From a virus: a stretch of 25,464 nt of DNA. Positions within the stretch are counted from its first letter, which is position 1. The number at the start of each line of letters is the position of its first letter. The DNA lies in the IMG/VR virus record IMGVR_UViG_3300035206_000817, positions 1 through 25,464 of that record; one strand, 5' to 3'. A program made the translations under genes and the position numbers. The notes under the pieces are model-generated. The model worked only from the letters and a program-made list of their open reading frames with translations. It was not told the DNA's origin and made no database searches. This document shows positions 3,321 through 25,464 of this stretch, in pieces.

Positions 3321-3322
3321 TC

Positions 3323-3330: not shown

Positions 3331-3341
3331 CTTAACTAAAA

Positions 3342-3671: not shown

Positions 3672-3762
3672 TGTTTAAACTCCTTCTATTATTTTGGCAT
3701 TATTATAAAAGTTATTAAAGTTGCCACGTTCAATAACTATCCCAAAGTGCTTTATGGAATTC

Positions 3763-7020: not shown

Positions 7021-7037
7021 TTTGGACAACTATATTA

Positions 7038-10123: not shown

Positions 10124-10183
10124 TTTGTTTAACGGTGAGGATTTAGTTATTTTTATAAGAGAATATGATCATATATACGACTA

Positions 10184-10987: not shown

Positions 10988-11140
10988 TTATTTATCTTTG
11001 GAAAAGGAATATTTAACAATCTCTAACCAATATTGATGCTTGGGTAATTCCCGGCACAATAAATCTTCCTCAAAATCTAGCAAGGATTTGATAGTGCGAT
11101 ATCTTTTTAGTATTTGAGTCATTAATTTATTAAAGATCAT
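10988..11140 (-). CDS. Small protein upstream of the HAD gene, 44-50 aa
   Basis: A short frame with starts at 11140 or 11122 (both ATG, in frame) reads MTQILKRYRTIKSLLDFEED, then LLCRELPKHQYWLEIVKYSF and a short lysine end. It looks soluble and helical. Its stop is directly followed by the ATG of the HAD gene (TAA-ATG), suggesting an operon and possibly coupled translation. No clear ribosome-binding site is seen at either start. Function unknown. Confidence 0.5.
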   Translation of the reverse strand: MIFNKLMTQILKRYRTIKSLLDFEEDLLCRELPKHQYWLEIVKYSFSKDK

Positions 11141-11178
11141 GTAATTTAGTCACTGTGCTTAGTTGTTCATATACATGG

Positions 11179-11634
11179 TTATTTAACTGATAATTTTAAC
11201 TTGGCTATTTTTTCTTCCACTTCTGAAGTAGCTTTTAATATTTTATCCTTCTCCGTGGGAGAAATAATTTCCCCCTGAGCTCCAGCAGGATTGATGGCAT
11301 CCTGTGTAACATCCATGAGGTTGCCGATTCTGCCGCCAATATTAATCAATACGTTAGATATGTTTTCGAATTCATTAATTTTTTTAAATTCTTCTGATAA
11401 CTTTAGACCAAAATTATCCAAAAAAGGCGTCCCCAGTCCTTTTTTTTGCATTAAAATATCTAATTTAATTGCATCATCAAAATATAAATTATGGTCTTTA
11501 TCATCGTGGTCGCTGCATTTTCTAAAATGTGAAACTGTCTTTCCGGAAATATTTTTTACTTCATCATCATTTATTTTACTAAGAGCAAAAGATAAAACTT
11601 GTTCCACAGTTAAGATTTTCCTGATTTTAGTCAT
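11179..11634 (-). CDS. Putative regulator-like protein, 151 aa
   Basis: The N-terminal half (ILTVEQVLSFALSK, GKTVSHFRKCSDHDDKDHN, LYFDDAIKLDILMQKKGLGT, PFLDNF) resembles small alphaproteobacterial phage-regulator-like proteins with a helix-turn-helix start and a DDAIxLD segment. The second half is a helical tail rich in Glu/Lys (about 85-151), perhaps for oligomerisation. DNA binding is a guess from pattern, not a strict motif. It is divergent from the plus-strand series starting at 11716, so it is well placed to control both. No ribosome-binding site is evident. Confidence 0.5.
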   Translation of the reverse strand: MTKIRKILTVEQVLSFALSKINDDEVKNISGKTVSHFRKCSDHDDKDHNLYFDDAIKLDILMQKKGLGTPFLDNFGLKLSEEFKKINEFENISNVLINIGGRIGNLMDVTQDAINPAGAQGEIISPTEKDKILKATSEVEEKIAKLKLSVK

Positions 11635-11664
11635 ATTTTAAATATTCAGAGTTTAACAGATTAG

Positions 11665-11692
11665 TTGTTGTCATCAATATTTGTGATAAAAT
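11665..11692 (+). promoter_or_regulatory. Possible sigma70-type promoter
   Basis: TTGTTG (11665-11670), a 16-base spacer and TAAAAT (11687-11692) stand ahead of the small membrane gene at 11716, within the divergent gap next to the regulator-like gene. The match is imperfect and AT-rich DNA gives many such hits. Confidence 0.25.
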
Positions 11693-11715
11693 ACTGAAAA
11701 TTAATAGTATTATTT

Positions 11716-11874
11716 ATGGCAAAAATTATCAAAAAAGGCTTAAAGAAAGGAAATAGATCAATATTGGAAAGAAAGTTAGATGAAGTAAACCACACCATGG
11801 AATTGATTAGAACGATTATTCCAATTATAATTTTAATAGTTCAAATTGTTATTTTAATAAAATTATTTGGTTAA
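11716..11874 (+). CDS. Small membrane protein, 52 aa
   Basis: The frame has a basic N-terminus (MAKIIKKGLKKGNRSILERK), a short helix with LDEVNHTMELIRT, and one strong membrane segment (IIPIIILIVQIVILIKLF) at the C-terminus. This is a tail-anchored layout. It is followed after 12 bases by the nuclease gene at 11887, with AAAGGAA serving as the ribosome-binding site for that gene. The two probably form an operon. Function unknown. Confidence 0.6.
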   Translation: MAKIIKKGLKKGNRSILERKLDEVNHTMELIRTIIPIIILIVQIVILIKLFG

Positions 11875-11886
11875 AAAAGGAATTAT

Positions 11887-12567
11887 ATGACAAAAAAATT
11901 TAATAAAGATAAAATTTTTAATTTTTCTGCCAGTGAATTTGCTTTTGGTTTTGAGGGTTGCCAAAGGTGTTATTATGATAAAAAGGTTAACAACATAGAG
12001 CTTAAAACTCCGTTTCCAGCTATATTTTCAAAGATCGATTACATACAGAAACATTATTACCATTCAAAATCCAGCAAACTGATCTCCAAAGATTTGGATG
12101 AGGGTGAAATTATAGCCGACTATAATAAAAAGCTCTATTCAGAGCTTTTATATGACAACAAAAAAAGACCTTTCACAATTACTGGAATGATTGATGCTTA
12201 TATAAAACATGAAAATTCTTTTACCGTTGTTGATTTTAAAACAACAAAAATTGAAGAAAAGAAAATCGATACTTACACCACGCAACTGCAAAGTTATGCC
12301 TTAATGATGGAAAAACCAAGAGAAGGAAGTTTAAAATTGAATCCTGTCAAAAAGTTAGGGATATTTTGCTTTGATCCCAATAGTATGTCCGGAACCAATG
12401 AAAAAGATTGTAAAATAAATATGGATACGCAATGGTTCGAAATTAAAAGAGACGACCAGAACTTAATTAATTATATCACTAAGATATTGGATGTTTTAAC
12501 CTCTGACGAAATTCCAAAGGGAAGTCCTAATTGTGGTGTATGCAATTATAGAAAATTAATTAAATAA
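11887..12567 (+). CDS. Cas4/RecB-like PD-(D/E)XK nuclease with four cysteines
   Basis: A 226-residue protein of the RecB/Cas4-type nuclease superfamily. The core is GMIDAYI (Asp103), VVDFKTTK (Asp116, Lys118), then the QLQSYAL motif (Gln133-x3-Tyr137). Cysteines frame the core: Cys25 and Cys28 in GCQRC near the N-terminus and Cys216 and Cys219 in NCGVC at the C-terminus, as in iron-sulfur-containing nucleases, although those usually have a 1+3 pattern rather than 2+2. It probably acts as a DNA exonuclease or end-processing enzyme; no cas genes or helicase are nearby. Its stop is directly followed by the ATG of an 18-aa ORF. Confidence 0.75.
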   Translation: MTKKFNKDKIFNFSASEFAFGFEGCQRCYYDKKVNNIELKTPFPAIFSKIDYIQKHYYHSKSSKLISKDLDEGEIIADYNKKLYSELLYDNKKRPFTITGMIDAYIKHENSFTVVDFKTTKIEEKKIDTYTTQLQSYALMMEKPREGSLKLNPVKKLGIFCFDPNSMSGTNEKDCKINMDTQWFEIKRDDQNLINYITKILDVLTSDEIPKGSPNCGVCNYRKLIK

Positions 12568-12624
12568 ATGGATAAAAAAGAAGCATTAAAGCAAATCAAA
12601 GCAGGCAATTTTTCACTTATATGA
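12568..12624 (+). CDS. 18-aa coupled mini-ORF (MDKKEAL family)
   Basis: ATG follows the nuclease stop without a gap, and the TGA stop overlaps the next gene start as ATGA. The peptide is MDKKEALKQIKAGNFSLI. Its DNA is almost wholly inside a 33-bp repeat also found at 14586-14618. It may be a leader peptide coupling two genes, or the remnant start of a DUF4116-type repeat protein, whose units look like DKE-VL-AVK. Both readings are inference. Confidence 0.4.
   Translation: MDKKEALKQIKAGNFSLI
12569..12601 (+). repeat. 33-bp direct repeat R1, copy a
   Basis: An exact 33-base match to 14586-14618, beginning TGGATAAAAAAGAAGCATTA. It encodes DKKEALKQIK in both places. It lies at the start of the mini-ORF ahead of the gene at 12621. 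Confidence 0.85.
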
Positions 12625-13205
12625 ATAACATTCCAGTTGATAGCATTGTTTTTTCTGTAACTTATGAGAATTATATTAAATATATTCTAAAAGATAAACC
12701 TGAAAAAAAAGTGGGTGAATGGAATATAGGTGATCATATGACCAATCTTTTAAAATTTGGTTACACTTATTTAAAAGACTCAGATCAAATGATTGTAAAG
12801 AAATACTATATAGATAGTTTTGAAAAGCAAAGTGATGGAAGATATTGTTTTTATTTCTCTAAAAGTGAAGATATTTTTTTCGAATATCCTTATTCTAGAG
12901 TTCAAGCTAGACATTACAGAAGAAGTATTGATTTAGAAAGATGCAATAGGTTATCTGAAAATGAAATAAAAATGCGATTGGAGAAATCAAAAAATATCAA
13001 ATCTGAAGCATCTACATCTAAAAAATTAAAAAAATCAGGTGTTTTTGAACCAACAAAAGAGGAATTAACCAAAATAAGAAATGAAAAATTCAAGGATCAA
13101 CCTTTACCAACTGCAGAGCAAGCTAGAAAGTTAATCGAAAGAGTTGAAAATGGAGAAGATGCAGATGCAGTTGTTACAGAATTTTATTTAGAGAAAAATA
13201 AATAG
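12621..13205 (+). CDS. Hypothetical protein, 194 aa
   Basis: The start ATG overlaps the mini-ORF stop (ATGA), which supports it. The N-terminal 100 residues are mixed beta/alpha with many aromatics (SVTYENYIKYILKD, TNLLKFGYTYLKD, GRYCFYFSKSEDIFFEYPYS). The C-terminal half is charged and helical, with KLKKSGVFEPTKEELTKIRN and ending in RKLIERVENGEDADAVVTEF. No family recognised and no membrane segment. It converges on the minus-strand nuclease gene; its stop lies within repeat R2a. Confidence 0.6.
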   Translation: MNNIPVDSIVFSVTYENYIKYILKDKPEKKVGEWNIGDHMTNLLKFGYTYLKDSDQMIVKKYYIDSFEKQSDGRYCFYFSKSEDIFFEYPYSRVQARHYRRSIDLERCNRLSENEIKMRLEKSKNIKSEASTSKKLKKSGVFEPTKEELTKIRNEKFKDQPLPTAEQARKLIERVENGEDADAVVTEFYLEKNK

Positions 13206-13216
13206 GATCTTTACAA
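13199..13216 (+). repeat. 18-bp direct repeat R2, copy a
   Basis: TAAATAGGATCTTTACAA, exact copy of 14317-14334. The two copies bracket the minus-strand nuclease gene. Confidence 0.85.
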
Positions 13217-13228
13217 GATAGTTTATAA

Positions 13229-14200
13229 TTATTTCTTTGTACGTATAACAGAATCATAATCTCTAGCAAAAACGTTTTGTAAATATTCTTCTTTCCTATT
13301 ATTTATATTATCATTATATCTATCCATGAATCTTTCATGCCAAGGTGTTTTACTATCTTTTTTCAAAGGTAAAATTAACCATTCCATATTCTTATTTCCT
13401 GATTGTTCTATGTCATTAAGCCAGTATTTCAGACACCACATATACTGATGTTCAATACTTTTTGGTGGTGGTGGTTTTAATAAATCGTTTTTATCAAAGT
13501 CATCTAATAATTTATCTATTCCTTGCCAACAAAATCGTGCTGGTCCCTCCATGCTTTCATGTATACCACAAGCGGGAAGCTCATGTTCTAAAGTTGCTGG
13601 TTTTCCAGTAAACAAATTTTTATGAATTTTTGATATTGCTTTAAAATATTTTTCATCACTATAAAAACCATCTTTTGGCAAGTTTTTGAGATCTTTGCTG
13701 AAATGTTTTACCAAGTCATCAAACATATATTTTGCTACATCTTTAGTTAATTGCCAGTAATAAGGGATTCTAATTACTCTAATAATTTTAGGTTCACCAT
13801 TAAGTTCAATTGAATCTAATTTATTGTATTTTTTTTGATCTTTTAACATTTTAAATGTATTTTGGTAATGAACGGGACCATCAAATTCAAATACTAAACC
13901 TAATTTTTCGATAAAATAATCCGGCGTCATTCCTACTGGAGTATGTTTAGAATTTGATTTATATTTATATCCTAGTTTACCTAAAGTTTTACCTGGCAGA
14001 CCCACTAATATTTTTCCATATTTCTTTTCTGGAATAAAACAATCAATAGCAACTTTTATTGGATCTTTTTTTTGTTTTTTCTTTGGTTCAAACCAACCTA
14101 TTTGATTTTTTTTGACTTTAAAAATTTTCTTAAATTCGTTACCTAAATAATGATGATAAATATTGTCAACATTTTTTCTTCTTTTTGAATTTGTATTCAT
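13229..14200 (-). CDS. Putative DNA nuclease of VSR/DUF559-like type
   Basis: A 323-residue basic protein. Residues 88-150 hold a VSR/DUF559-like PD-(D/E)XK pattern: MTPDYFI (Asp94), LVFEFDGPVHY (Glu105, Asp107, His111), then a charged helix and RVIRIPYYWQ. The N-terminus has many Lys/Arg. The C-terminal 170 residues contain GIHESMEGPARFCWQGIDKL and a Trp/His-rich segment (QYMWCLKYWLNDIEQSG). Such cores nick or cut DNA. It is the only minus-strand gene between 11.7 and 22.6 kb and sits between two copies of an 18-bp repeat, which suggests separate insertion. The specificity is unknown. Confidence 0.6.
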   Translation of the reverse strand: MNTNSKRRKNVDNIYHHYLGNEFKKIFKVKKNQIGWFEPKKKQKKDPIKVAIDCFIPEKKYGKILVGLPGKTLGKLGYKYKSNSKHTPVGMTPDYFIEKLGLVFEFDGPVHYQNTFKMLKDQKKYNKLDSIELNGEPKIIRVIRIPYYWQLTKDVAKYMFDDLVKHFSKDLKNLPKDGFYSDEKYFKAISKIHKNLFTGKPATLEHELPACGIHESMEGPARFCWQGIDKLLDDFDKNDLLKPPPPKSIEHQYMWCLKYWLNDIEQSGNKNMEWLILPLKKDSKTPWHERFMDRYNDNINNRKEEYLQNVFARDYDSVIRTKK

Positions 14201-14316
14201 TTATTTAATTAATCGAATTTTTTATATAATAATGGAATTACGGTTTTAATCAATTGCAAAAAATAATTTAATCTATCTAGCTTTCTTTCTACTTAACTCA
14301 CTGTTAAAGAAATTAC

Positions 14317-14334
14317 TAAATAGGATCTTTACAA
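14317..14334 (+). repeat. 18-bp direct repeat R2, copy b
   Basis: TAAATAGGATCTTTACAA, exact copy of 13199-13216. It lies 27 bases ahead of the WGR gene. Confidence 0.85.
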
Positions 14335-14361
14335 ATAATACAAAACATAATAACCTTAAAT

Positions 14362-14571
14362 ATGGATAAAACACGTTTAGAATATAAGGATAAAGTTTCA
14401 CAAAAGTTTTGGGAAGTCAGCGCGACTGGTAGCACCATCAACGTTAAATATGGAAAGTTAGGAACTGCAGGACAAAACTCAGTTAAAAAAATGAGTACCC
14501 CTGATGCTGCTAAGAAAGAAGTGGAGAAGCTGATTAAGTCAAAGCTAAAAAAAGGCTATAAGAAAAAATAG
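14362..14571 (+). CDS. Stand-alone WGR-domain protein
   Basis: A 69-residue protein that is little more than a WGR domain: KFWEVSATGSTINVKYGKLG then TAGQ, with the usual Arg of YGRxGTxGQ replaced by Lys, and a conserved helical end (DAAKKEVEKLIKSKLKKGY). WGR domains bind DNA ends in eukaryotic PARPs; in bacteria they occur in MolR/DUF4132-type proteins (the yehI-yehQ region of E. coli) beside AAA+ and VWA genes, as also here further downstream. It probably binds DNA or a partner protein. No ribosome-binding site is obvious. Confidence 0.8.
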   Translation: MDKTRLEYKDKVSQKFWEVSATGSTINVKYGKLGTAGQNSVKKMSTPDAAKKEVEKLIKSKLKKGYKKK

Positions 14572-14584
14572 TAACCAAAGTATT

Positions 14585-14659
14585 TTGGATAAAAAAGAAG
14601 CATTAAAGCAAATCAAAGAAGGGGTAACCAAAAAAATAAAGGAAATAATAAATGCCTAA
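14585..14659 (+). CDS. 24-aa mini-ORF with TTG start (MDKKEAL family)
   Basis: A frame starting with TTG and reading xDKKEALKQIKEG, then VTKKIKEIINA. It overlaps the start of the DUF4116 gene by 8 bases. It carries repeat R1b and matches the peptide at 12568. It may be a remnant or a coupled leader; the lack of an ATG makes translation uncertain. Confidence 0.25.
   Translation: MDKKEALKQIKEGVTKKIKEIINA
14586..14618 (+). repeat. 33-bp direct repeat R1, copy b
   Basis: An exact match to 12569-12601. It lies between the WGR gene and the DUF4116 repeat gene. Confidence 0.85.
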
Positions 14660-15857
14660 ATGGTATGAAAAAGGTTCAGTTGAAGATAAAGTCGAATGGG
14701 CCGAAGAATGGTCACCTGATAATAATTCCGTAAATATAAATTGGTTGGCAGAAGATGGTGAACCAGATGTGCGCGAAGCACTTGCTCGTAATAAAAATAT
14801 ACCCTTACAAATTTTAAAAAAACTTGCTAAGGATGAACATTATAGTGTTCGCTCTAATGTCGCTGGGCATCCTAATGCTAGCAAAGAAATATTACACAAA
14901 TTAGCAAAGGATGGTGATAAATCTGTAAGCGGAGCGGCTAAAAATAATCCCAATTTTAAAACTCTTGAATTTGCCGATAAGAAGTCAAAAGGAGATAAAA
15001 AGTTTATTCTCGCAGCGGTAAAACAAGATGCTCGAGCTCTTCAAGATACCGACGACAAGTTAAAAGGAGACAAAGAGATTGTTCTTGAAGCGGTAAAACA
15101 ATCTGGCTCTGCTCTTCAACATGCCGATAAAAAATTAAGAGCAGATAAAGAGTTTGTTCTTGCAGCGGTAAAACAAAATGGTGATGCTCTTCAATATGCC
15201 GATAAGAAGTTAATGGGAGATAAAAAAATTGTTCTTGCAGCAGTAAAAAAAGAAGGCTCTGCTCTTCAACATGCCGATAAAAAATTAAAAGGAGACAAAG
15301 AGATTGTTCTTGAAGCGGTAAAACAAGATGGTCGAGCTCTTCAAGATGCCGATAAAAAGTTAAAAAGAGATAAAGAAGTTGTTCTTGCAGCGGTAAAACA
15401 AAAAGGTTGGGCTCTTAAATATGTCGATAAGAAGTTGAAAGCCGATAAAAAAATTGTTCTTGCAGCGATAAAACAAGATGTCAGTAATCTCCAATATGCC
15501 GATAAAAAGTTAAAAGCTAATAAAGAAGTTGTGCTTGCAGCGGCAAAACAAGATGGTCGGGTTCTTGAATTTGCCGATAAGAAGATGCAAGCCAATAAAG
15601 AAGTTGTTCTTGTAGCGATAAAACAAGATGTTTATTATTTCCCATACGCCGATAAAAAGTTAAAAGCTAATAAAGAAGTTGTGCTTGCAGCGGTAAAACA
15701 ATCTGGTCGAGCTCTTGAATTTGCCGATAAGAAGTTAAAAGGAAATAAAAAAATCGTACTCATAGCAGTAAAACAAGATGTCTCTGCACTTGAATATGTA
15801 GACGACAGTTTAAAAAATAATCCTGATATTCTGGCAATAGTTAATAAGGATAAGTGA
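14652..15857 (+). CDS. LRV + DUF4116 repeat protein, 401 aa
   Basis: Residues about 28-105 hold three leucine-rich-repeat-variant (LRV, HEAT-like) units of the type AKDEHYSVRSNVAGHPNAS. From residue 108 to 382 come eleven 25-residue units of DUF4116 type, each close to ADKKLKGDKEIVLEAVKQ plus 7 residues, with a shorter twelfth to the end. Such solenoid proteins have no enzymatic core and usually act as binding or sensing scaffolds. No signal peptide or membrane segment. The units are near-identical at DNA level, so copy number may vary between strains. Its stop overlaps the next small ORF as TGATG. Partners in this island are inferred. Confidence 0.8.
   Translation: MPKWYEKGSVEDKVEWAEEWSPDNNSVNINWLAEDGEPDVREALARNKNIPLQILKKLAKDEHYSVRSNVAGHPNASKEILHKLAKDGDKSVSGAAKNNPNFKTLEFADKKSKGDKKFILAAVKQDARALQDTDDKLKGDKEIVLEAVKQSGSALQHADKKLRADKEFVLAAVKQNGDALQYADKKLMGDKKIVLAAVKKEGSALQHADKKLKGDKEIVLEAVKQDGRALQDADKKLKRDKEVVLAAVKQKGWALKYVDKKLKADKKIVLAAIKQDVSNLQYADKKLKANKEVVLAAAKQDGRVLEFADKKMQANKEVVLVAIKQDVYYFPYADKKLKANKEVVLAAVKQSGRALEFADKKLKGNKKIVLIAVKQDVSALEYVDDSLKNNPDILAIVNKDK
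14973..15797 (+). repeat. Eleven tandem 75-bp coding repeats
   Basis: A 75-base period encodes the 25-residue DUF4116-type units. Common DNA blocks include GCCGATAAAAAGTTAAAAG and GTTCTTGCAGCGGTAAAACA. Variation between units is mostly at a few codons (Gly/Ala/Arg after KLK; Asp/Ser/Lys after VKQ), which suggests recent expansion or gene conversion. Confidence 0.85.
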
Positions 15858-15952
15858 TGGATAGAAAAGAAGCATTAAATATAGTTCAAGAATCTGGATA
15901 TGAATTAGAAAATCTACCTGATAAATTTAAAAAAGTTGATAAAAAAAATTAA
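15857..15952 (+). CDS. 31-aa coupled small ORF (MDRKEAL family)
   Basis: The start overlaps the DUF4116 gene stop as TGATG. The peptide opens MDRKEALNIVQESGYELENL and ends PDKFKKVDKKN; it fits one DUF4116-like unit (K-EAL-IV---G--L---P-K-K). It is related to the peptides at 12568 and 14585. It could be a real small partner of the repeat protein or a remnant. Confidence 0.45.
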   Translation: MDRKEALNIVQESGYELENLPDKFKKVDKKN

Positions 15953-15966
15953 TTTTATTAAGATAA

Positions 15967-15986
15967 GTCAAAAATTTTTTTTTGAC
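15967..15986 (+). promoter_or_regulatory. AT-rich hairpin ahead of the BRCT-LRR gene
   Basis: GTCAAAAA and TTTTTGAC pair around a TTTT loop, 20 bases ahead of the ATG at 16007. The right arm includes TTGACA, but no good -10 box follows at the right spacing. It may be a weak terminator for the preceding genes or an operator. Confidence 0.25.
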
Positions 15987-16006
15987 AAAATGTTAATATT
16001 TTCACA

Positions 16007-19000
16007 ATGAAAAGTCTATTAAAAGCAATAAGAAGTTCAGAAGATTTAACCTGTTTATTTAATTTTTGTGAAAATAATGGGATTGAGATGTCGCGTAAGG
16101 GTTACGCTATAACTTTGGAAAATATCCAAACTGGAGTCATTAACTGGGGGGGATACGGTAGTGTCTTTAGCATTGGTCCAAATCTGTTCAACTATTTAAC
16201 ACTTAAATATCCCGATGGAGACCCTCCAAGAGGAAAAACTTTCGCACATGTAAAAATGATATTTAACGGAGACCTGAAAAATAATGATACAGAAGAGGTT
16301 ATTCAGAGGATCGAAAAATTGGGGGGATTAGTCGTTCAGAATATTGATAAAAAGATCAACTTGATAGTGAACGGGAAAGATGCAAATAAACAATTAGTAA
16401 AGAAGGCAGAGAAATTAAATCATGTTCTGATTCTGGATGAAAAACGTTTTATCGAGATCTTACCTGCAATTAGAAAAAAACCCATAAAACGAAAAGTAAA
16501 ACCACGAAAAGACCTTCCTAATACAGTCGATAAAAAAGTGTTGAATAATTTAAAAAAACTTTTTATCAGCCGTGACAACGATCTTATTTCTCAAGGTCTC
16601 GAAATGTTTCGTTCTTTGGAAAATGCTGATGTATCCAAATATTTTCTAGATGAGGTTCAATATGCAACTAAGGCTGATGGTCGTCTTATTCCTAACCCTA
16701 TATTTAGTGGAACCGCTCCTGCACAACCTTATCTGAATTATGCCCTGTTAGGGGTTATTGCTTATGCTCCTGATGATTGTGAAATTGCTAACAATTTAAA
16801 AAATTCTGTTAAATTTCTAGATATTGAGACTACGATTTCAAGCCCATTGGCAGCGTTTCAAAATTTGGAATCATTGGATTTAAGTAACTCAGAGGGATTG
16901 GAAGACCTTGATGGTATTGCCTCGTTAAAAAAGCTGCAACATATTGAGATCAATAACTGTAATGCTTTGAAAAGTTTGAAAGGTTTGCTTAATAAAAACC
17001 TGAAGATGACATCATTAGATTTAAGAAATTTTAGATATTTAGAAAATCTTGAGGGTGTTCAAAGCATGAATAATTTGAAAAAAATTGTGCTTGTAGGATG
17101 TGATAAATTAAAGAACGTAGATGCACTAAAAAATCTAACTCATTTAAAAGAAGTTGAGATGGATGGCCTTAGAGCTTTAGAATCCTTAGAAGGTCTTAAA
17201 GTTTTGGAGAAAAGTCGAACTGAATTGGATTTGTATGGATTTGATTCAATAAAGAATCTGAAAGGGATCCAGAATTTTCATAAACTTCAATCTCTTAGTA
17301 TTACAAATAATAGTTTGACTGACATTACTGCTCTAAAAGGGCTGAAGTCTCTTAAAAAACTTTATATAAGTTCCGATAATTTGACCTTGCTAAAAGGTAT
17401 TGGGTCACTTCCTAAACTAGAGATATTAGATATATATGTCCGAATTGTTAAAAGTTTAGATGGTCTTAAAAATCTAACTGCCCTGGACAAGATGGTTATA
17501 AATTGTGATAAATTAAATAGTCTAAAAGGTCTCGAGCAAGCTCCTAATATAACTGATTTAACAATATGTTCTAAAGATCTGAAAGACATCACCAGAATTA
17601 ATTCCTTAACCAAGTTGAAGACTCTGGATTTAAGTAGTTGTAATTCAATTCAAAACCTTCATGGGCTAGAAAAATTAAATTTTTTGGAGTCAATTAATGT
17701 GAATGATTGCAGCAAATTAGTAAGTTTGCAAGGGGTACCAAATCCAAATGTCTTTGGATCAGACGTCAGTTTTGACAATTGTTCCTCTCTGAAGGATATT
17801 ACGGCCCTGAAAGGAATCTCTAAAATTGAAAGAATGAGTTTAGATGGATGCTCTTCAATTAGCAAAACAGAAGGACTAGAAAACATTGAAATAGAGAGTC
17901 TTAGTTGCTATGATATGAATATAAATGCGCTGCAAAATTTAAGTAATCTTAAAGTCAAAACACTCCATTTATATTTAGGTGCGTCAGGCACACCAACATC
18001 TTTAGAAGGTTTTAAGGTATGGGAATCAGTCACCGATCTAACTGTCCACAAAAAATCCTTTAAAAGCCTAATTGGTATTGATGCTTTCCCAAACATTAAT
18101 TATTTAAGTTTAGAAAAATGCGAAAGACTAATAAATCTAATTGGAATTGAAAAACTGAAACATCTAGAAAAGTTAGATTTAACAGGATGTACTGCAATGA
18201 AAGAAGTAAGTTCATTGTCAGAATTGCCAAATCTAGCAGAATTGAAAATGGATGGATGTACTCAAGTGGATCCTCTTCCCCGTCCTAAAGTGATGGAAGA
18301 TCGGGAGAAAGTGGAAAAATATCAATTGCGACTGTTAAAAGCACTTGGGAAAGATGTACCTGTAACTGCAAAAAAAAAATCTATAGGATCTAAAAATAAT
18401 AAACCTTCTGTTGATAAGAAAACATTTTCTAAAGTCAAAAAGCTGCTGACTGTCCGTGACATTAATTTAATTAACCAAGGATTGGAACTCGTCCGTTCAC
18501 TGGAAGACCACTCCTTATATCAGAAGCTTCTTAAAGGAATTCAGTATAAAATTTTTAAATCTAAAACATGGAATGCTGAAGAACAGGTAAAGGGTCGTCT
18601 TGTCCCAAATTCTACATTTAAAGGAACTGGTCCGGCACAACCTTATCTGAATTATGCAATGAGAGAGCTGATCAATAATGCTCCGAACGACTTTGTGCAA
18701 AAGATCCGAAATGAGGTGAAGGATTTGCAACTTGATGTATTTGGAGACATTTCAAATTTTACAAACCTTGAAAAATTATCTTTGTCTTATTCTTATAATT
18801 CACCCGAGAGTTATAAACCAACCATTTCATCTTTAAATAAATTCTCAGTTTTTGAAAAACTTACTTATCTAGATATATATGGTTACTTTATTCCTGATGA
18901 TCAGGACCTGAAAGGGCTTTCAAATCTTAAAAAATTAAGAGAACTCAATTTATCTGGAGGATCTGCACTGAAAACACTTATTGGAATGGAGAATTGTAGA

Positions 19001-20110
19001 GAGTTACAAAAATTGGATATTGAAGAGTGTACTAAATTAATCGATGTTGAAGGACTAAGTGGTTGCCAAGAACTTAAATCTATTAAATTATCAAGCGCTA
19101 AAAGATTAAAAAACCTAAATGGATTGAAAGGATTGAAGTCATTGAAAACTATTAATATCGATGCTGCAGAATCCTTAGAAAATCTGGATGGTTTAAAAGG
19201 ATGTAGTTCTCTTGTGGAAATTAATATTAGTAATTCGGAATCCTTAAAAAATCTAGATGGCTTACATGGATGTAATTCCCTTGAGAAAATTACAATTAGC
19301 GGAGGATCTTGTGATGGAAATTCCAAAAAACAACCTATTAAAAACGTTGATGGTCTCAGAGGTTTGAAAAATTTAAAGGATGTAGATTTATCCATTTTTA
19401 CCTCATTGAAAAATGTTGATGGGTTAAGGGGATGTTCTGTTCTTGAATCGCTTCGTATTGAATCGGATTCATTAGAAAATATAAATGGTTTGCAAAATTT
19501 GAAGGCTCTAAATTATTTCTATCTTGATGCAATAAAATTGAAGAATATCGATGGTCTTTCTGGGTGTGAAAACCTAGAAGATTTTGATATCCAATCTGAA
19601 AATATTGAAAACTTAAATGGATTAAAGGGGTGCAACAAGTTAAAAACATTGAATATTCCTGGTTTAGCAAAATCATTAAACCTCGATGGATTGGCTTACG
19701 CGGATGGTTTGCGAAGAATTAACTTTTCTGGTTGTAATCTAACAAGTTTTGACTTCACTCAGAAAATTCCACGAATAATGGGAATAGAAATCAAATCTTG
19801 CAATCAGATTAAATCATTGGAAGGGCTTGGAAATTTGATCAATTTAACTAAACTCGTAATCAAGAACTGTACAAAACTCGAGAATCTTAAGGGACTTGAG
19901 GGTATAAAAACCCTTGAATCAGTAATTATTCAGGATTGTAAATCATTGAAAGACGTAGACGCCTTACTTTCATTGCCAAAACTTGATATCTTCAAGATAC
20001 GTTCCTGTGGAATTAAGAAGGAAGAACTGCCAGGACATTTAAAAGTTATAGTTAAAACAACAATTAGTTATTATGATGACTTACCACATGATTTTGATGA
20101 CAACAAATAA
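16007..20110 (+). CDS. BRCT + leucine-rich-repeat protein with duplicated module, 1367 aa
   Basis: Residues about 76-152 form a BRCT domain (KNNDTEEVIQRIEKLGGLVV, then INLIVNGKDANKQLVKKAEK, ILDEKRFIEIL). At 174-290 comes a helical module with GRLIPNPIF and APAQPYLNYAL, followed by a long run of bacterial leucine-rich repeats (about 290-755; 22-23-residue units like LKNLDGLKGCxSLxxIxI). The same module recurs at 802-930 (GRLVPN, GPAQPYLNYAM) with a second LRR run to about 1350. BRCT domains bind DNA ends or phosphoproteins; LRRs bind proteins. No signal peptide, so cytoplasmic. A large sensor or scaffold is likely. The MoxR gene follows after 65 bases. Confidence 0.8.
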   Translation: MKSLLKAIRSSEDLTCLFNFCENNGIEMSRKGYAITLENIQTGVINWGGYGSVFSIGPNLFNYLTLKYPDGDPPRGKTFAHVKMIFNGDLKNNDTEEVIQRIEKLGGLVVQNIDKKINLIVNGKDANKQLVKKAEKLNHVLILDEKRFIEILPAIRKKPIKRKVKPRKDLPNTVDKKVLNNLKKLFISRDNDLISQGLEMFRSLENADVSKYFLDEVQYATKADGRLIPNPIFSGTAPAQPYLNYALLGVIAYAPDDCEIANNLKNSVKFLDIETTISSPLAAFQNLESLDLSNSEGLEDLDGIASLKKLQHIEINNCNALKSLKGLLNKNLKMTSLDLRNFRYLENLEGVQSMNNLKKIVLVGCDKLKNVDALKNLTHLKEVEMDGLRALESLEGLKVLEKSRTELDLYGFDSIKNLKGIQNFHKLQSLSITNNSLTDITALKGLKSLKKLYISSDNLTLLKGIGSLPKLEILDIYVRIVKSLDGLKNLTALDKMVINCDKLNSLKGLEQAPNITDLTICSKDLKDITRINSLTKLKTLDLSSCNSIQNLHGLEKLNFLESINVNDCSKLVSLQGVPNPNVFGSDVSFDNCSSLKDITALKGISKIERMSLDGCSSISKTEGLENIEIESLSCYDMNINALQNLSNLKVKTLHLYLGASGTPTSLEGFKVWESVTDLTVHKKSFKSLIGIDAFPNINYLSLEKCERLINLIGIEKLKHLEKLDLTGCTAMKEVSSLSELPNLAELKMDGCTQVDPLPRPKVMEDREKVEKYQLRLLKALGKDVPVTAKKKSIGSKNNKPSVDKKTFSKVKKLLTVRDINLINQGLELVRSLEDHSLYQKLLKGIQYKIFKSKTWNAEEQVKGRLVPNSTFKGTGPAQPYLNYAMRELINNAPNDFVQKIRNEVKDLQLDVFGDISNFTNLEKLSLSYSYNSPESYKPTISSLNKFSVFEKLTYLDIYGYFIPDDQDLKGLSNLKKLRELNLSGGSALKTLIGMENCRELQKLDIEECTKLIDVEGLSGCQELKSIKLSSAKRLKNLNGLKGLKSLKTINIDAAESLENLDGLKGCSSLVEINISNSESLKNLDGLHGCNSLEKITISGGSCDGNSKKQPIKNVDGLRGLKNLKDVDLSIFTSLKNVDGLRGCSVLESLRIESDSLENINGLQNLKALNYFYLDAIKLKNIDGLSGCENLEDFDIQSENIENLNGLKGCNKLKTLNIPGLAKSLNLDGLAYADGLRRINFSGCNLTSFDFTQKIPRIMGIEIKSCNQIKSLEGLGNLINLTKLVIKNCTKLENLKGLEGIKTLESVIIQDCKSLKDVDALLSLPKLDIFKIRSCGIKKEELPGHLKVIVKTTISYYDDLPHDFDDNK

Positions 20111-20175
20111 TTAGAAAACTGAATATACAATAATTAATTATTATAATATGATTCAGATTTAAATAGGTGTAAATT

Positions 20176-21327
20176 ATGAAGAAAAACCTCTTGCTCTATG
20201 GAGCAAAATTAGATTCCAAAAAACTTGGAACAGCGCTCGAACATATTTTCGAAACAAATTTGTCACTTCAGAATAAGGGTAAGCGAGGAACCCCAGTTTG
20301 TATTTGGGGAACGCATGGACTTGGAAAGACGATGTTAGTGCAAGAGTTTGCAAAAAAAAATAAATGGCACTTAGCATATTGCGCACCTGCCCAGTTTGAA
20401 GAAATGGGAGACCTGCACGGTATGCCATATCAAGTAGATCCTGATAAAAATATAATTGGAGATGAATATACTGCTTTTGCTCCTCCAGATTGGGTACCTA
20501 AACAGAAAGGACCCGGAATTCTCCTTCTCGATGACATTAACAGAGCAGATGATCGAATATTGAGGGGTTTAATGCAATTATTACAAAACTTTGAGCTGTT
20601 TTCATGGCAATTGCCACCAAAATGGCAAATTGTAGCAACAGCAAATCCAGAGGGAGGAGATTATTCTGTTACACCAATGGATGATGCTATGCTGACAAGG
20701 CTACTCCATCTAACGATGGTTTTTGATCCTAAAACTTGGGCACAGTGGGCAGATAGTGCTGGAGTAGACTCCCGAGGAATTGATTTTGTTTTGACATATC
20801 CCGAAATAGTTTCTGGTAAACGCACAACACCGAGATCTCTGGTGCAGTTCTTTGAACAGATCAAGGATATACCTAATCTCAAGGATGAGATAGAAATGGT
20901 CTCTACTTTAGCTCTCAGTTCTCTGGATGATGTTACTGTGGGAACTTTTTTGGGATTTGTCAATGACAACCTGGAACAACTTGTTAGTTCAGAAGAAATA
21001 TTACAAGCAAAAGATTTTAAAAAAGTTTCAAAACGAATCGAAAGTCTAAGTAAAACAGACGTGGGAGAAAAAAAAACAGAAGAGGGAGGAAAAAGAGTAG
21101 ACAGACTTGCAACAATATGCACTAGATTGTATCTGACGTTGACCAAAGAAAAATACGAACCCCAAAGTAATCATTCTGATAATCTGGTTAAATTTATGTT
21201 GATAGAATGTTTGCCCAACGATCTACGAATGAGTCTTCACTCCGATCTCATGAAAAATGGATCAGAAAAAGTGAAAAAAATGCTTCGAGACAAGCGTCTT
21301 GCAAAATTACTAATTGGCGGCATGTAG
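20176..21327 (+). CDS. MoxR-type AAA+ ATPase
   Basis: A 383-residue AAA+ protein: Walker A GTHGLGKT at 45-52, Walker B ILLLDD at 115-120 followed by INRADD, sensor-1 Asn in ATANPEGG (157), and a DAMLTRLLH segment (170-178) with Arg175. The C-terminal helical lid continues to about 250 and a less conserved charged tail follows. MoxR ATPases act as chaperone-like motors with VWA partners. The VWA gene follows immediately. An AGGTG ribosome-binding site lies 8 bases ahead of the ATG, and a TATAAT (20142-20147) stands in the short gap. Base composition is visibly less AT-rich than the LRR gene. Confidence 0.85.
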   Translation: MKKNLLLYGAKLDSKKLGTALEHIFETNLSLQNKGKRGTPVCIWGTHGLGKTMLVQEFAKKNKWHLAYCAPAQFEEMGDLHGMPYQVDPDKNIIGDEYTAFAPPDWVPKQKGPGILLLDDINRADDRILRGLMQLLQNFELFSWQLPPKWQIVATANPEGGDYSVTPMDDAMLTRLLHLTMVFDPKTWAQWADSAGVDSRGIDFVLTYPEIVSGKRTTPRSLVQFFEQIKDIPNLKDEIEMVSTLALSSLDDVTVGTFLGFVNDNLEQLVSSEEILQAKDFKKVSKRIESLSKTDVGEKKTEEGGKRVDRLATICTRLYLTLTKEKYEPQSNHSDNLVKFMLIECLPNDLRMSLHSDLMKNGSEKVKKMLRDKRLAKLLIGGM

Positions 21328-21328
21328 T

Positions 21329-22531
21329 GTGAAGGATGTACAGGAAGAATTGTCGCGCTGCATTATTCAAATGCTGTTCAAAGAACCTTTTTTCAATCAC
21401 TTACTAAGTGGAGTAGTTCGCGTAGTTACAAAAAAGGTCCCAACCGCTGCAGTAAGTTTTTCAGGGAATAAAATTCAACTTTTGATAAATGAATCTTTTT
21501 TCATTAAAGAACTTCGGTCGCAAACCAATAGGGTGGCGGTTATTAAACATGAGAGTCTACATCTTTTGTTTAAACATCTTTTTCGCATGGATTTAGAAAA
21601 ATATGATCGCTCTTTATTCAATATAGCTGCAGATTTAGTTGTAAATCAGTTTATAGGTTCCTGGAAGTTGCCTGATAGTGCAGTTACACTAAGATCATTT
21701 CCAGACTTAGAATTGGAACAGAATCAAACCGTAGAGTGGTATTATAAAAAGCTCATAAAACTTCGAGATTCTTCCTCTGCAAGAGACTCTTTCCCTAAAA
21801 GCGCTGAAGCTTTGTCAAAAAAACTGGATAAAACTATTCACGGTGATCATAGTCACTGGGGAATCCCCAAAGATGCAAAAGGCCAGGTCGATGCATATGG
21901 TGCTGAAACGGAACTAGATCGTATGATCATCCAAGCAAGAGAACGAACTCCGTCCAAATATCATGATACTATACCCGGAGAAATTAATGCCCTCATTGAC
22001 TCTTTGATTGAAAGTCGAAAACCCAAGGTGGATTGGAGGAGAACTTTGCGAATTTTTGCTACGAACAGTCGCCGGACTTATATCTTTTCGACAATGCATC
22101 GTATTAGCAAACGCTACGGCACCCGCCCGGGAATTAAAGTCAAACAATTTCAAAAGATAGCAGTGGCGATTGACACTTCTGGATCTGTCAGTGACACAGA
22201 TCTAGGTATTTTTTTCACAGAAATTGATGCCATGTACAAGCAGGGGGCAGAAATCGTGGTCATTGAATGTGATGCGGAAGTGCAACGAACCTACAATTAC
22301 AAAGGTCAATTGCCCACCGAAGTTGCCGGAAGGGGAGGAACTGAATTTGATCCGGTATTTGCTTTTCTTAGGAGCAATCGTCTCACTCACTACGATGGAT
22401 GCATTTACCTTACAGATGGATGTGCTGACGAGCCTACAATTCGTCCACCTTGCCCTTTATTGTGGGTAATTACTGCCGATGGAGATGCAGGGGATCATCT
22501 TCGTTTTGGGCGAATTATAAAATTGTCATAA
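21329..22531 (+). CDS. DUF2201-like metallopeptidase + VWA-domain protein
   Basis: The GTG at 21329 follows the MoxR stop by one base; a TTG at 21314 would overlap it and add five residues. From the GTG the protein has 400 residues. It has an N-terminal metallopeptidase-like domain with HESLH at 74-78 (HExxH) and NIAADLVVNQFIGSWKLP, the DUF2201-like pattern. The C-terminal VWA domain has an intact MIDAS: DTSGS (Asp282, Ser284, Ser286), Thr338 in GGTEF and Asp363 in YLTDG. VWA partners receive force or signals from MoxR. It probably works with the MoxR protein as a pair; whether the peptidase site is active is unknown. Confidence 0.85.
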   Translation: MKDVQEELSRCIIQMLFKEPFFNHLLSGVVRVVTKKVPTAAVSFSGNKIQLLINESFFIKELRSQTNRVAVIKHESLHLLFKHLFRMDLEKYDRSLFNIAADLVVNQFIGSWKLPDSAVTLRSFPDLELEQNQTVEWYYKKLIKLRDSSSARDSFPKSAEALSKKLDKTIHGDHSHWGIPKDAKGQVDAYGAETELDRMIIQARERTPSKYHDTIPGEINALIDSLIESRKPKVDWRRTLRIFATNSRRTYIFSTMHRISKRYGTRPGIKVKQFQKIAVAIDTSGSVSDTDLGIFFTEIDAMYKQGAEIVVIECDAEVQRTYNYKGQLPTEVAGRGGTEFDPVFAFLRSNRLTHYDGCIYLTDGCADEPTIRPPCPLLWVITADGDAGDHLRFGRIIKLS

Positions 22532-22606: not shown

Positions 22607-25198
22607 TTATGTCAATGGAGCAATTTTATTTCCATCAATTTCCTTAAACTCACCTTTTTTTAATGTTCTGGGAATTACTCTATATCCTTTTTTATCTGGC
22701 AACATCAGTGTTACTTGCTGCAACATTTCAGGACCAATGCTAATGTGCAAGGGTCGTTTTTGTCCATAGAAATACATACGGTCAAAGATGAGGTTTTCAT
22801 CTATCCATTTGGCTACTTCCATCATATCTTCATCTTCAACAATAAAATCAACAGCAGCTCCAAGTCTTGGGCATATTATCTTATTATTCTGATCTAATTC
22901 GTATGCAGCATGTTGATCTAGTTCAGGTGCAATGCGCCCAGGAATTAGTTTTGCGAGTTCAGTCGAACAAAAACCAAAAGTTAATTCGATTGAGCCAAAA
23001 TAATCTATAATCGGATCTAATAATCCCTGAGCTAATTCTTGAAGGGCGGTGTAGCTGTCAGGATTCTTTGGAAGATTTTCAATCCCTGAATTTTTCTGTG
23101 TTTCTCCGCACTCAATGAAGTTACGGTAAAAGTAATTTTCACCACAAGCAGTGTCAATATCTGGAATTGTTTTGCTTCGAATAAGTGAAAGTTTGTCGAC
23201 TTGCCATCTCTGTTTTTCCAACTTATGCAAAAATTCCTTTGGGGCAGGCCCATATTCTCTAAAATCAAAAAGTTTTAGTTCTTCTAATTGTTCATCAAAT
23301 GTACACTGTTGAGCAAAACTTTCCATTTCCTCATTCATATACTTTGATTTTTGATACAAATTCCGAGGTTCAAACTCATCTCCATACTCGTAGAATTCAA
23401 GTTTTTGTTTGCGGAAATCAATTTTTGTACGTTCTAATAATCGAGGTATAGCTTCCTCAGCAAAATTGTCATAACGCATCAAAGATATTTTTCCAGATAG
23501 AATATGTATTTTCAGCAAATCCGCTGATGTAACATCACCATAGAGTACCGTGGCACATCCTACATAAACTCTAAGCAAGGGTGGTAGTCGCTCTACTAAA
23601 GAGGTATGAAGTTGCAAAGATTTTTTTGGTAACAACAAACCTAAACCTTCTGAAGCAGCTTTTGAGCAGTTTCTATCAATTTCTTCTACATTAGATATTT
23701 TAAAGAGTAAATCACGGGCATCGTTCCTTGCTTTACCGATATTTCCAAAAAAAACTTTAATGTCCCGCTGAAATGAAAATTGCATTTTATTAAAAGCAGT
23801 ACGCTTCTTGAACAATTCTAATGCTAAAAATACGAGTAAATCATTTCTTTTAGATTCTCCGGCTGCATTCAACAACGAGTCATTTTTTTGGCTACGCAAA
23901 AAACGTAATGCGCGACCTAGTGAACCAAATGCTTTTTTCAGGAGATCTAAATTCTGAACCTCATTAGATGTTGGTTCCCTTCCAAAATCAATCCACTGAA
24001 TCCATAAAGTTTCTAATAACTCCTTGTATTCTTCATATTTTTCTTTATCTTTTTCTTCAGGAGTACGTCTAGGTGCGAGCCTGAGGTTTGCTCGCTTCAA
24101 AAATGAATGAGATCTGCTTTGGCTGAGCAAATATCGTTGATGTAGGACTTTATCTTTAAATACAAAGAAAACACCGGGAGCCACCGCGATTGACTCTTCA
24201 TTCAGATGTTCTTCTATAAATTCTTTCAATTCTTTTGGTGCATAGTATTTTTGGAAAGTTTTTCTACCAGTTAGTACACCATCTCGAAAAGACTCGCTTT
24301 GATTTTTATTGTTATATTCCAACATCACGGCAACCACAAGTAATCCACTTGCTAAAGAGTATGCACCTTGTAATGCATCAACTCTATCCTGAAAATCTTC
24401 AATCACGTTTAGAACATAACCTAAATTGACTATATCAGTTTCAATTTTTTGTTTATCACTAGCGTAGTGAGGATCCCAACCATAAGCTTCAATGTCATTT
24501 TCAATAAGACCTCGTAAGTCGTCTCCCTTTCCACAACCATAATCAAAAACAGAATAGTCTCCGTCAAGAAAACCTAAACGCATTAGAGATTGAATAGGCG
24601 CTGAAAATCCATAACGCACCATTGCAGTACGGTGGCGCTGAATTCCGGATTCGTCAGAATCTTCATTGTATGTTCCAGATTGTTCTATGCCTGATTTATC
24701 TTTATTTAACAACGGAACGAATTGATGACCTTCGATATAATATCCCTCATTATTAACTAATTTTTCCCACTGATTTCGAAATCCAATTCTTGACACATCC
24801 TTGAAAAGTCCAAGATTTTCAGCTTCTTTTGTTAAATTTGTAAAGCATTCTCTTTGTGGGTGATTTTCTGAAAGCAGTAATTCTTTTCTGTGGAGGATTG
24901 GCGGATTGAAGGAATTGGAATAAGTTCGGAAAGTGCATTTGTCAAGTTTAAAATCCACATGCCAACTAGATTCAAGTTCCGGGAATCCTTCATCGAAAAA
25001 TTTCGGATAATTCAAGAAGGAAAGAGAGGATAAATCATTAGATAATTTCAGAACATTGAACTCTGAATCAGTCTTGAGTCCAGCTCGATCAAGCCCTTTT
25101 ATAATGGTCGCCTGTTCTTCATTTGAGAGTGAACTTAATTGCGAAACATGAATGTAATATGCTGTCGGTGTTCGTTTCCCAATATACTGTTTAGACAT
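22607..25198 (-). CDS. DNA-phosphorothioation-associated methyltransferase fused to an M15-like peptidase domain
   Basis: From the ATG at 25198 the protein has 863 residues; a GTG at 25231 would add 11 but lies within the upstream gene. It matches the Dnd-related putative methyltransferase family (TIGR04096 type): RHRTAMVRYG (188-197), SAM motif VFDYGCGKGDD (217-227), GWDPHY, NLGYVLNVIED (258-268), and the later LPPLLRVYVGCA (538-549). NPPILHRK lies at 98-105. The last part (about 717-824) resembles the M15/hedgehog-type DD-peptidase fold: TFGFCS, DQHAAYE (His763), AAVDFIV (Asp784) and LHISIG (His818), three candidate zinc ligands. The role may be DNA modification or defence; no dnd genes are in the window. 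Confidence 0.75.
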   Translation of the reverse strand: MSKQYIGKRTPTAYYIHVSQLSSLSNEEQATIIKGLDRAGLKTDSEFNVLKLSNDLSSLSFLNYPKFFDEGFPELESSWHVDFKLDKCTFRTYSNSFNPPILHRKELLLSENHPQRECFTNLTKEAENLGLFKDVSRIGFRNQWEKLVNNEGYYIEGHQFVPLLNKDKSGIEQSGTYNEDSDESGIQRHRTAMVRYGFSAPIQSLMRLGFLDGDYSVFDYGCGKGDDLRGLIENDIEAYGWDPHYASDKQKIETDIVNLGYVLNVIEDFQDRVDALQGAYSLASGLLVVAVMLEYNNKNQSESFRDGVLTGRKTFQKYYAPKELKEFIEEHLNEESIAVAPGVFFVFKDKVLHQRYLLSQSRSHSFLKRANLRLAPRRTPEEKDKEKYEEYKELLETLWIQWIDFGREPTSNEVQNLDLLKKAFGSLGRALRFLRSQKNDSLLNAAGESKRNDLLVFLALELFKKRTAFNKMQFSFQRDIKVFFGNIGKARNDARDLLFKISNVEEIDRNCSKAASEGLGLLLPKKSLQLHTSLVERLPPLLRVYVGCATVLYGDVTSADLLKIHILSGKISLMRYDNFAEEAIPRLLERTKIDFRKQKLEFYEYGDEFEPRNLYQKSKYMNEEMESFAQQCTFDEQLEELKLFDFREYGPAPKEFLHKLEKQRWQVDKLSLIRSKTIPDIDTACGENYFYRNFIECGETQKNSGIENLPKNPDSYTALQELAQGLLDPIIDYFGSIELTFGFCSTELAKLIPGRIAPELDQHAAYELDQNNKIICPRLGAAVDFIVEDEDMMEVAKWIDENLIFDRMYFYGQKRPLHISIGPEMLQQVTLMLPDKKGYRVIPRTLKKGEFKEIDGNKIAPLT

Positions 25199-25208
25199 CT
25201 GTAATTTA

Positions 25209-25464
25209 TTAATTTCTTTTGACACTTTCACGCACCCTTGAATCTTCGTCCTCTGCTAACTTTTCCAGGACCAAAACGGGTGTATTTGCATTTTCTGCAA
25301 CACTTTCGCGCACCCTTGAATCTTCGTCCTCCGCCAGCTTTTCCAGGACCAAAACGGGTGTATTTGTGTTTTTTGCAACATTTCTGCGTGCCCACCAAGA
25401 CTCATCTTTCGCAATCTTCTTTAGTACAATGGGTGGGGTGTTTGGATTTTCGGCTATTGATTCG
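25209..25464 (-). CDS. C-terminal part of an LRV (HEAT-like) repeat protein
   Basis: The frame enters at the window edge and ends at a TAA at 25211-25209. It holds three and a half 24-residue units of leucine-rich-repeat-variant type, such as ANTPVLVLEKLAEDEDSRVR. The last two units are almost identical in DNA (72-base period). The units resemble the LRV part of the DUF4116 protein at 14652. The stop is 10 bases ahead of the methyltransferase ATG, so the two are probably one operon. The start and any catalytic domain lie outside the window. Confidence 0.75.
   Translation of the reverse strand, partial: ESIAENPNTPPIVLKKIAKDESWWARRNVAKNTNTPVLVLEKLAEDEDSRVRESVAENANTPVLVLEKLAEDEDSRVRESVKRN

What the first reader, a model, noticed from the sequence alone, without database searches (positions are those of the whole stretch)
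14362..22531. Candidate undescribed system: WGR + LRV/DUF4116 + BRCT-LRR + MoxR + metallopeptidase-VWA
All five genes are on the plus strand in series. MoxR-VWA pairs beside WGR proteins are known (for example the yeh/mol region of E. coli), and MoxR/VWA modules are proposed in NTP-dependent conflict systems. This version replaces the usual WGR-DUF4132 effector by a free WGR domain, a BRCT-LRR giant and an LRV/DUF4116 solenoid. A model: repeat proteins and BRCT/WGR sense foreign or damaged DNA, MoxR-VWA relays it, and the HExxH domain or nearby nucleases act.
Basis: inference. Interest (0 to 1): 0.75.

Follow-up and report, generated by a model that had tools for sequence, protein, structure and literature searches.

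The report
Bacterial ATPase–peptidase–repeat-protein module in SAR11

Summary
Outside this contig the BRCT-LRR giant, the MoxR ATPase and the metallopeptidase-VWA (DUF2201) protein form a conserved module: all seven Bacteroidota loci with a close MoxR relative carry VWA and LRR genes beside it (four found by MoxR alone; chance about 5e-9). WGR has one independent link, a WGR-LRR-BRCT fusion at one such locus. DUF4116 is not a part: it occurs alone in many SAR11 islands. The IMG/VR record is a hybrid: 1 to ~8.9 kb is pelagimyophage; beyond that the DNA resembles SAR11 chromosomal islands. A second assembly (8,356 bp, 99.8%) supports LRR-MoxR-VWA. Window MoxR and VWA belong to the LRR-linked bacterial clade, not the common phage VWA-MoxR pair (none of 80 such loci has LRR or WGR). 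Best reading: an LRR/BRCT(/WGR) sensor coupled to a MoxR-vWA-peptidase remodeller, a new variant of MoxR-vWA conflict-type systems. Defence is plausible (AbiE, Avs-like, DndA/SspA-type neighbours) but untested. By sequence it is not the E. coli yeh system.

The parts
14362..14571 (+). Free WGR domain, 69 aa; probable optional component
   Evidence: PF05406 5e-16; one independent link: WGR fused to LRR and BRCT beside MoxR-VWA in L023, the only WGR found in that genome
14652..15857 (+). LRV + DUF4116 repeat protein, 401 aa; neighbour, not part of the module
   Evidence: DUF4116 1e-126; ten ~75-nt repeats in register; DUF4116 genes stand alone in SAR11 islands L151-L155
16007..20110 (+). BRCT + two cap-LRR blocks, 1367 aa; core component, proposed sensor
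   Evidence: cap-LRR relatives beside MoxR-VWA in L012, L013, L014, L028, L029
16250..16420 (+). BRCT-like domain, about residues 82-138 of the LRR giant
   Evidence: RFC1 BRCT 5.1e-5, LigA and PARP1 BRCT weaker
16514..16906 (+). First cap domain ('PAQPYLNYA'), about residues 170-300
   Evidence: 43% identical to the second copy; mostly pLDDT above 85 in the model
18407..18793 (+). Second cap domain
19930..20077 (+). 3' end of the LRR gene; a second copy (148 nt, 92.6%) lies just before the ion-channel gene on the overlapping contig L021 (11331-11476)
20176..21327 (+). MoxR-type AAA+ ATPase, 383 aa; Walker A GTHGLGKT at 20308-20331
   Evidence: AAA_5 3.6e-8, phrog_1297 9e-37; motifs; tree
21314..22531 (+). 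DUF2201 protein, 405 aa: metallopeptidase-like N-terminus (HESLH 21548-21562) plus VWA with MIDAS DTSGS (22172-22186), T and D
   Evidence: DUF2201_N and DUF2201; phrog_1314 1.1e-60; motifs
22607..25231 (-). DNA-phosphorothioation-associated putative methyltransferase (TIGR04096); convergent neighbour
   Evidence: 4.7e-174
8900..16000 (.). Stretch with DNA similarity to SAR11 cellular genomes (context of the cassette)
   Evidence: 80 of 397 Pelagibacteraceae genomes match pieces; pairwise
300..8896 (-). Pelagimyophage-type genes, mostly syntenic with phages Mosig and HTVC008M (context)

Best explanation
The core is a three-component, ATP-driven sense-and-remodel module. SHOWN: a conserved gene set of cap-LRR giant, MoxR AAA+ ATPase and DUF2201 protein, with intact Walker motifs, HExxH and MIDAS in the window, sometimes with BRCT and once with WGR in the LRR protein. 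INFERRED: the LRR/BRCT(/WGR) protein is the sensor. BRCT of the RFC1/LigA/PARP1 type and WGR of the PARP type would bind DNA ends, and the LRR solenoid would bind a ligand or hold the complex inactive. The vWA MIDAS captures a peptide of the sensor or its target, the MoxR ring pulls, and the metallopeptidase domain cuts or is released. The likely job is response to invading or broken DNA, that is, defence or damage response. In this window the module sits in a SAR11-type genomic island; DUF4116 and the Dnd/Ssp-like genes are neighbours, not parts.
For: Linkage: a scan with the LRR cap found L012-L014, each with MoxR (60-64%) and VWA (45-53%) beside it. A search by MoxR alone added four genomes, all four with VWA and LRR adjacent; chance of the LRR adjacency about 5e-9 from genome-wide LRR counts. 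In G003 and G004 the only LRR_4 ORF of the genome, and in G680 both, lie in this locus. Fusion: WGR + TPR + LRR + BRCT in one protein at L023; BRCT + caps in L012. Motifs. Clade: window MoxR and VWA group with the cap-LRR-linked loci (99/99 and 100/99). Defence-like neighbours: AbiEii 5e-99 and Avs2-like/NACHT proteins at L013 and L014; TIGR04096, DndA/SspA-type and SspD-like genes and a PDC-S34 gene here. A 234-nt repeat at 96.6% brackets the L012 module, as if inserted. MoxR-vWA conflict systems with a third sensor component are described (PMC7159879).
Against: No functional data. L012, L028, L029, L023 and L030 have no obvious defence cluster beside them. No separate toxic effector is recognisable. 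The L023 VWA has HQxxH and its first MIDAS motif was not found by pattern, so peptidase activity is not universal. WGR is absent from most related genomes. BRCT is recognised in only three loci (window, L012, L023). The cap domain has no confident PDB match and the VWA model is poor.
Confidence: 0.42

Rival explanations
1. Housekeeping chaperone: MoxR-VWA is a maturation or unfolding machine, and the LRR protein is its client or adaptor (as in RavA-ViaA or CbbQ-CbbO), with no role in conflict.
For: MoxR-vWA pairs commonly act this way (review in PMC7159879). Most Bacteroidota loci have ordinary neighbours.
Against: Patchy distribution (3 of 395 Bacteroidota genomes), a module bracketed by repeats, and AbiE/Avs-like or Dnd/Ssp-like neighbours at three loci.
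Confidence: 0.27
2. DNA-damage response or repair module of the host: BRCT and WGR find broken ends and MoxR-VWA remodels or clears the bound complex.
For: BRCT matches RFC1, LigA and PARP1; PARP1 also pairs BRCT with WGR (general knowledge); WGR and BRCT fused at L023.
Against: BRCT and WGR are missing from several loci that keep the triad; no repair genes recognised nearby.
Confidence: 0.15
3. Phage virion-assembly pair: the MoxR and metallopeptidase-VWA are phage proteins that process structural proteins, and LRR/WGR/DUF4116 are accidental neighbours.
For: Phages have a related pair (phrog_1297, phrog_1314; hundreds of records), proposed for virion assembly (PMC7824862); the record is labelled viral.
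Against: Window proteins sit in the bacterial LRR-linked clade; gene order is reversed and phage loci have no LRR or WGR; phages Mosig and HTVC008M have no relative in the stretches compared; the region resembles SAR11 chromosomes.
Confidence: 0.06
4. Chance clustering inside a gene-rich SAR11 island; no functional unit.
For: True for DUF4116; the island is a mosaic with repeated fragments.
Against: The LRR-MoxR-VWA triad recurs in eight loci of two phyla.
Confidence: 0.05

Closest known systems
MoxR-vWA-centric ternary conflict systems (Kaur et al. 2020, PMC7159879)
   Same: A MoxR AAA+ ATPase and a vWA protein plus a third, large, system-defining protein; vWA sometimes fused to a peptidase; mobile, patchy, conflict-type neighbours
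   Different: Third component is a BRCT/WGR cap-LRR giant, not VMAP, iSTAND, FtsH or beta-propeller; WGR and BRCT do not occur in that paper and LRR occurs once; found here in marine bacteria not known as multicellular
Phage MoxR + metallopeptidase-vWA pair (Iyer et al. 2021, PMC7824862; phrog_1297/phrog_1314)
   Same: Same two protein families: AAA+ MoxR and an N-terminal metallopeptidase fused to vWA
   Different: Different clades in both trees, order VWA then MoxR, no LRR or WGR within 10 kb in 80 loci
E. coli yehF-yehI-yehL-yehM-yehP-yehQ region
   Same: WGR protein near a MoxR ATPase and a VWA protein
   Different: No significant similarity of MoxR or VWA to YehL or YehP; has DUF4132 and SWIM proteins, no LRR giant
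Leptospira WGR-LRR protein LIC_11051 (NF047464)
   Same: WGR joined to LRR in one chain; window WGR 3.5e-14, LRR giant 1.2e-5
   Different: Far below the family cut-off of 1000 bits; annotated as a fibronectin-binding protein; no MoxR-VWA link tested
Plasmid MoxR-(third protein)-VWA sets (Arcobacter, Rhodovastum, Synechocystis pSYSA)
   Same: MoxR and DUF2201-type VWA side by side or with one gene between
   Different: About 30% identity; third protein has no detectable similarity to the LRR proteins

Membership tests
MoxR-vWA-centric ternary conflict systems | Core MoxR AAA+ and vWA pair encoded together | tested here: met
   Adjacent and overlapping by 14 nt here; adjacent or near in all seven related loci
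MoxR-vWA-centric ternary conflict systems | Conserved third component of a described class (VMAP, iSTAND, FtsH, beta-propeller) | tested here: not met
   Pfam, NCBIfam and PADLOC give none of these; the third component is BRCT-LRR
MoxR-vWA-centric ternary conflict systems | Role in conflict with invaders | not testable with these tools
   Only neighbourhood evidence
Phage MoxR + metallopeptidase-vWA pair | MoxR and VWA of the phage clade | tested here: not met
   Window proteins fall in the cap-LRR-linked clade, 99/99 and 100/99
Phage MoxR + metallopeptidase-vWA pair | Location in a phage genome | tested here: inconclusive
   Record holds phage genes at 1-8.9 kb, but the cassette lies in SAR11-like DNA
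E. coli yeh (YehL/YehP/WGR-DUF4132) | MoxR of YehL type and VWA of YehP type | tested here: not met
   BLASTP E 0.16 and 0.30
E. coli yeh (YehL/YehP/WGR-DUF4132) | DUF4132 protein | tested here: not met
   No DUF4132 hit among the right-half proteins scanned
Known anti-phage systems in PADLOC-DB 2.0 | Core proteins match a PADLOC model | tested here: not met
   Five proteins: only weak partial hits, best 0.0015
DUF2201 (PF13203 + PF09967) | Metallopeptidase-like and VWA-like domains above cut-off | tested here: met
   59.7 and 65.2 bits, cut-offs 23.2 and 26.4

The most novel reading that the evidence does not exclude
A further class of MoxR-vWA defence systems whose third component is a BRCT/WGR-armed LRR receptor that detects DNA ends, carried in mobile islands of SAR11 and Bacteroidota, with the LRR receptors duplicated and recombined at some loci to vary what they recognise.
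Probability: 0.27. Interest if true: 0.75.

Novelty: new variant of a known kind. Interest (0 to 1): 0.52.

Why it matters
SAR11 is among the most abundant and most streamlined groups of marine bacteria, and little is recorded about how it resists phages. A compact module that joins DNA-end-type domains and a large LRR to an ATP-driven peptidase would add a receptor-like branch to MoxR-vWA conflict systems, reminiscent in layout of LRR immune receptors elsewhere. The Flavobacteriaceae versions (about 5 kb: MoxR, cap-LRR, VWA) make it directly testable.

Tried and rejected
(1) Five-gene unit: rejected; DUF4116 is an independent SAR11 island gene. (2) Phage virion-assembly pair: rejected by tree, gene order and DNA context. 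(3) Yeh/mol variant: rejected by sequence. (4) PAQPYLNYA pattern in IMG/VR: no match. (5) VWA close-relative scan of IMG/VR: none; with an alignment, 552 places, the best 80 all less than 40% identical. (6) Methyltransferase and w13229 in IMG/VR: none. (7) Methyltransferase in other Pelagibacteraceae: only the G001 bin, 1 of 297. (8) MoxR in Alphaproteobacteria: only that bin, 1 of 337. (9) Structure: cap model without significant PDB match; VWA model too poor to search. (10) Sigma-70-type promoters no more common than in shuffles. (11) WGR alone in phages or plasmids: no match. (13) My notebook states the distance from the nuclease gene to the channel gene as 21.7 kb; the correct figure is 16.1 kb.

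Full report
OBSERVATION. The window is a whole IMG/VR record of 25,464 bases. The five + strand ORFs exist at the stated coordinates with the stated domains. The BRCT was the weakest call (Pfam 0.0027), but the segment matches the RFC1 BRCT at 5.1e-5 and LigA and PARP1 BRCTs more weakly (LigA model 4e-6). The LRR giant holds two copies of a ~130-residue cap domain, 43% identical, each with PAQPYLNYA. MoxR has GTHGLGKT, LLLDDINR and TANP. The DUF2201 protein has HESLH, DTSGS, GRGGT and YLTDG, so the HExxH and MIDAS are complete. LRR and MoxR are 65 bases apart; MoxR and VWA overlap by 14.

LINKAGE OUTSIDE THE CONTIG. A profile of the two caps was scanned against 84,980 genomes. It returned an almost identical contig (L011/L021, Pelagibacteraceae MAG) and three Bacteroidota contigs (L012-L014), all three with MoxR (60-64% identical) and VWA (45-53%) next to the cap-LRR gene. 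These were chosen by the LRR, so I searched again by MoxR alone at E <= 1e-60: 3 of 395 Bacteroidota, 2 of 149 in the family of L014, 4 of 250 in the family of L012, 1 of 337 in the class of L011 (the starting genomes are among these). Four new genomes scored above 480 bits (L023, L028, L029, L030). All four have VWA adjacent or near and an LRR gene within 5 kb. Genome-wide LRR counts put the chance of this at about 5e-9 if positions were random. A fifth, weaker MoxR (L024, 308 bits) stands alone. In L028 and L029 the order is MoxR, cap-LRR, VWA in one run; in L013 and L014 MoxR and cap-LRR, with VWA convergent; in L030 VWA, MoxR, LRR.

WGR AND DUF4116. L023 encodes WGR, TPR, LRR, BRCT and LRR in one 1,156-residue protein four genes before VWA; this is the only WGR found in that genome. 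G474 has its WGR far away, and the genomes of the other five Bacteroidota loci have none. So WGR is a plausible but optional part. DUF4116 is absent from the related loci; two genomes have it on other contigs. It occurs in SAR11 islands without MoxR, LRR or WGR. It is a neighbour.

PHAGE OR HOST. PHROG assigns VWA to phrog_1314 (1.1e-60) and MoxR to phrog_1297, and tblastn finds the VWA in 264 phage records. But in 80 IMG/VR loci the pair stands in the order VWA then MoxR where both are present (a few fragments lack the MoxR), with no LRR-type ORF or WGR motif, by pattern, within the stretch held, up to 10 kb each side. Trees put window MoxR and VWA with the cap-LRR-linked bacterial loci (99/99 and 100/99). 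The two more distant LRR-linked loci (L023, L030) fall outside this tight clade. Bases 300-8896 are pelagimyophage: 57-63% identity and synteny with Pelagibacter phage Mosig for several genes. From about 8.9 kb on, pieces match DNA of SAR11 cellular genomes: 80 of 397 genomes, including a contig of 1.46 Mb. Codon usage of 8.9-14.2 kb is close to a SAR11 contig (0.33) and far from Mosig (0.83). In other SAR11 genomes the Cas4-like nuclease gene (relative of 11887-12567), a 98-aa gene and a Castor/Pollux-type channel are consecutive. L021 overlaps the window over 8,356 bp at 99.8% and ends in that channel gene. Joining the two records by coordinates, nuclease and channel are 16.1 kb apart, with w12621, w13229, WGR, DUF4116, LRR, MoxR, VWA, methyltransferase, LRV protein, cysteine desulfurase and an SspD-like protein between; the 98-aa gene is missing. 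So the cassette fills a site that is short in other SAR11 genomes. Whether the phage-SAR11 join near 8.9-9.6 kb is biological or an assembly chimera cannot be told here. WGR and DUF4116 next to the LRR start rest on the window assembly alone, since L021 begins inside the LRR gene.

MOBILITY. In L012 a 234-nt repeat (96.6%) brackets the module, and 274 nt covering the VWA 3' end and the start of the next LRR gene are duplicated at 97%. In the SAR11 pair, 148 nt of the LRR 3' end recur (92.6%) just before the channel gene. L029 has a second LRR-type gene after VWA. Repeated loss and duplication of LRR genes at these loci suggests recombination; that this diversifies recognition is speculation.

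MECHANISM. Shown: gene set, domains, intact motifs. Established knowledge: MoxR-vWA pairs are AAA+ remodellers whose vWA captures a peptide (review in PMC7159879); BRCT and WGR occur together in PARP1. Inferred: DNA-end sensing, conformational release or cleavage by the metallopeptidase domain, and a conflict role. For conflict: AbiEii and Avs2-like/NACHT-TPR genes at L014, Avs2-like genes at L013, DndA/SspA-type and SspD-like genes and TIGR04096 here, patchy distribution, insertion signs. Against: five loci without defence neighbours, no phenotype, HQxxH in L023. The chaperone and repair rivals stay open.

COMPARISON. Closest are the MoxR-vWA ternary conflict systems (PMC7159879) with another third component, and the phage MoxR + metallopeptidase-vWA pair proposed for virion assembly (PMC7824862). 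The E. coli yeh region is laid out similarly, but its MoxR and VWA are not recognisably related to these. Searches of open-access papers found no description of an LRR/BRCT/WGR-MoxR-DUF2201 set; subscription papers were not covered.

Noticed in passing
window 8900-9600: Apparent join of pelagimyophage DNA (left) and SAR11-type island DNA (right); chimera or real recombination undecided. SAR11 islands carry a distant version of the same lipoprotein-type cluster near relatives of the w11179 and w11887 genes.
   Followed up: partly
window 4908-8896: Tandem duplication of a three-gene lipoprotein-type cassette (4908/7038, 5673/7833, 6520/8375 match the same three phage Mosig proteins), with relatives in SAR11 islands.
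   Followed up: partly
window 22607-25231 and L021 8101-11277: TIGR04096 phosphorothioation-associated methyltransferase, an LRV protein, a DndA/SspA-type cysteine desulfurase and an SspD-like protein: a partial phosphorothioation-like set beside the module.
   Followed up: partly
phrog_1314 records, e.g. H1, H7, H14, H19: Phage records label this protein 'HNH endonuclease', but the window member is DUF2201 metallopeptidase-VWA by Pfam; the label looks wrong.
   Followed up: no
window 12569-12605, 14586-14622, 15858-15894: Short repeats (97% and 73%) after three genes; the first matches the start of a DUF4116 gene in SAR11 contig L151 at 96%: fragments of DUF4116 genes, perhaps recombination points.
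   Followed up: partly
window 13190-13216 and 14308-14334: Shared AAATAGGATCTTTACAA element, once at a gene end and once before the WGR gene; function unknown.
   Followed up: no
L012 4848-5081 and 18437-18670: 234-nt direct repeat (96.6%) bracketing the MoxR-VWA-LRR module, with a gene copy cut short on one side: signs of insertion.
   Followed up: partly
window 10184-10987: HAD-like protein matching PADLOC candidate PDC-S34 (2.4e-94), with a relative in SAR11 contig L156 (62%).
   Followed up: no
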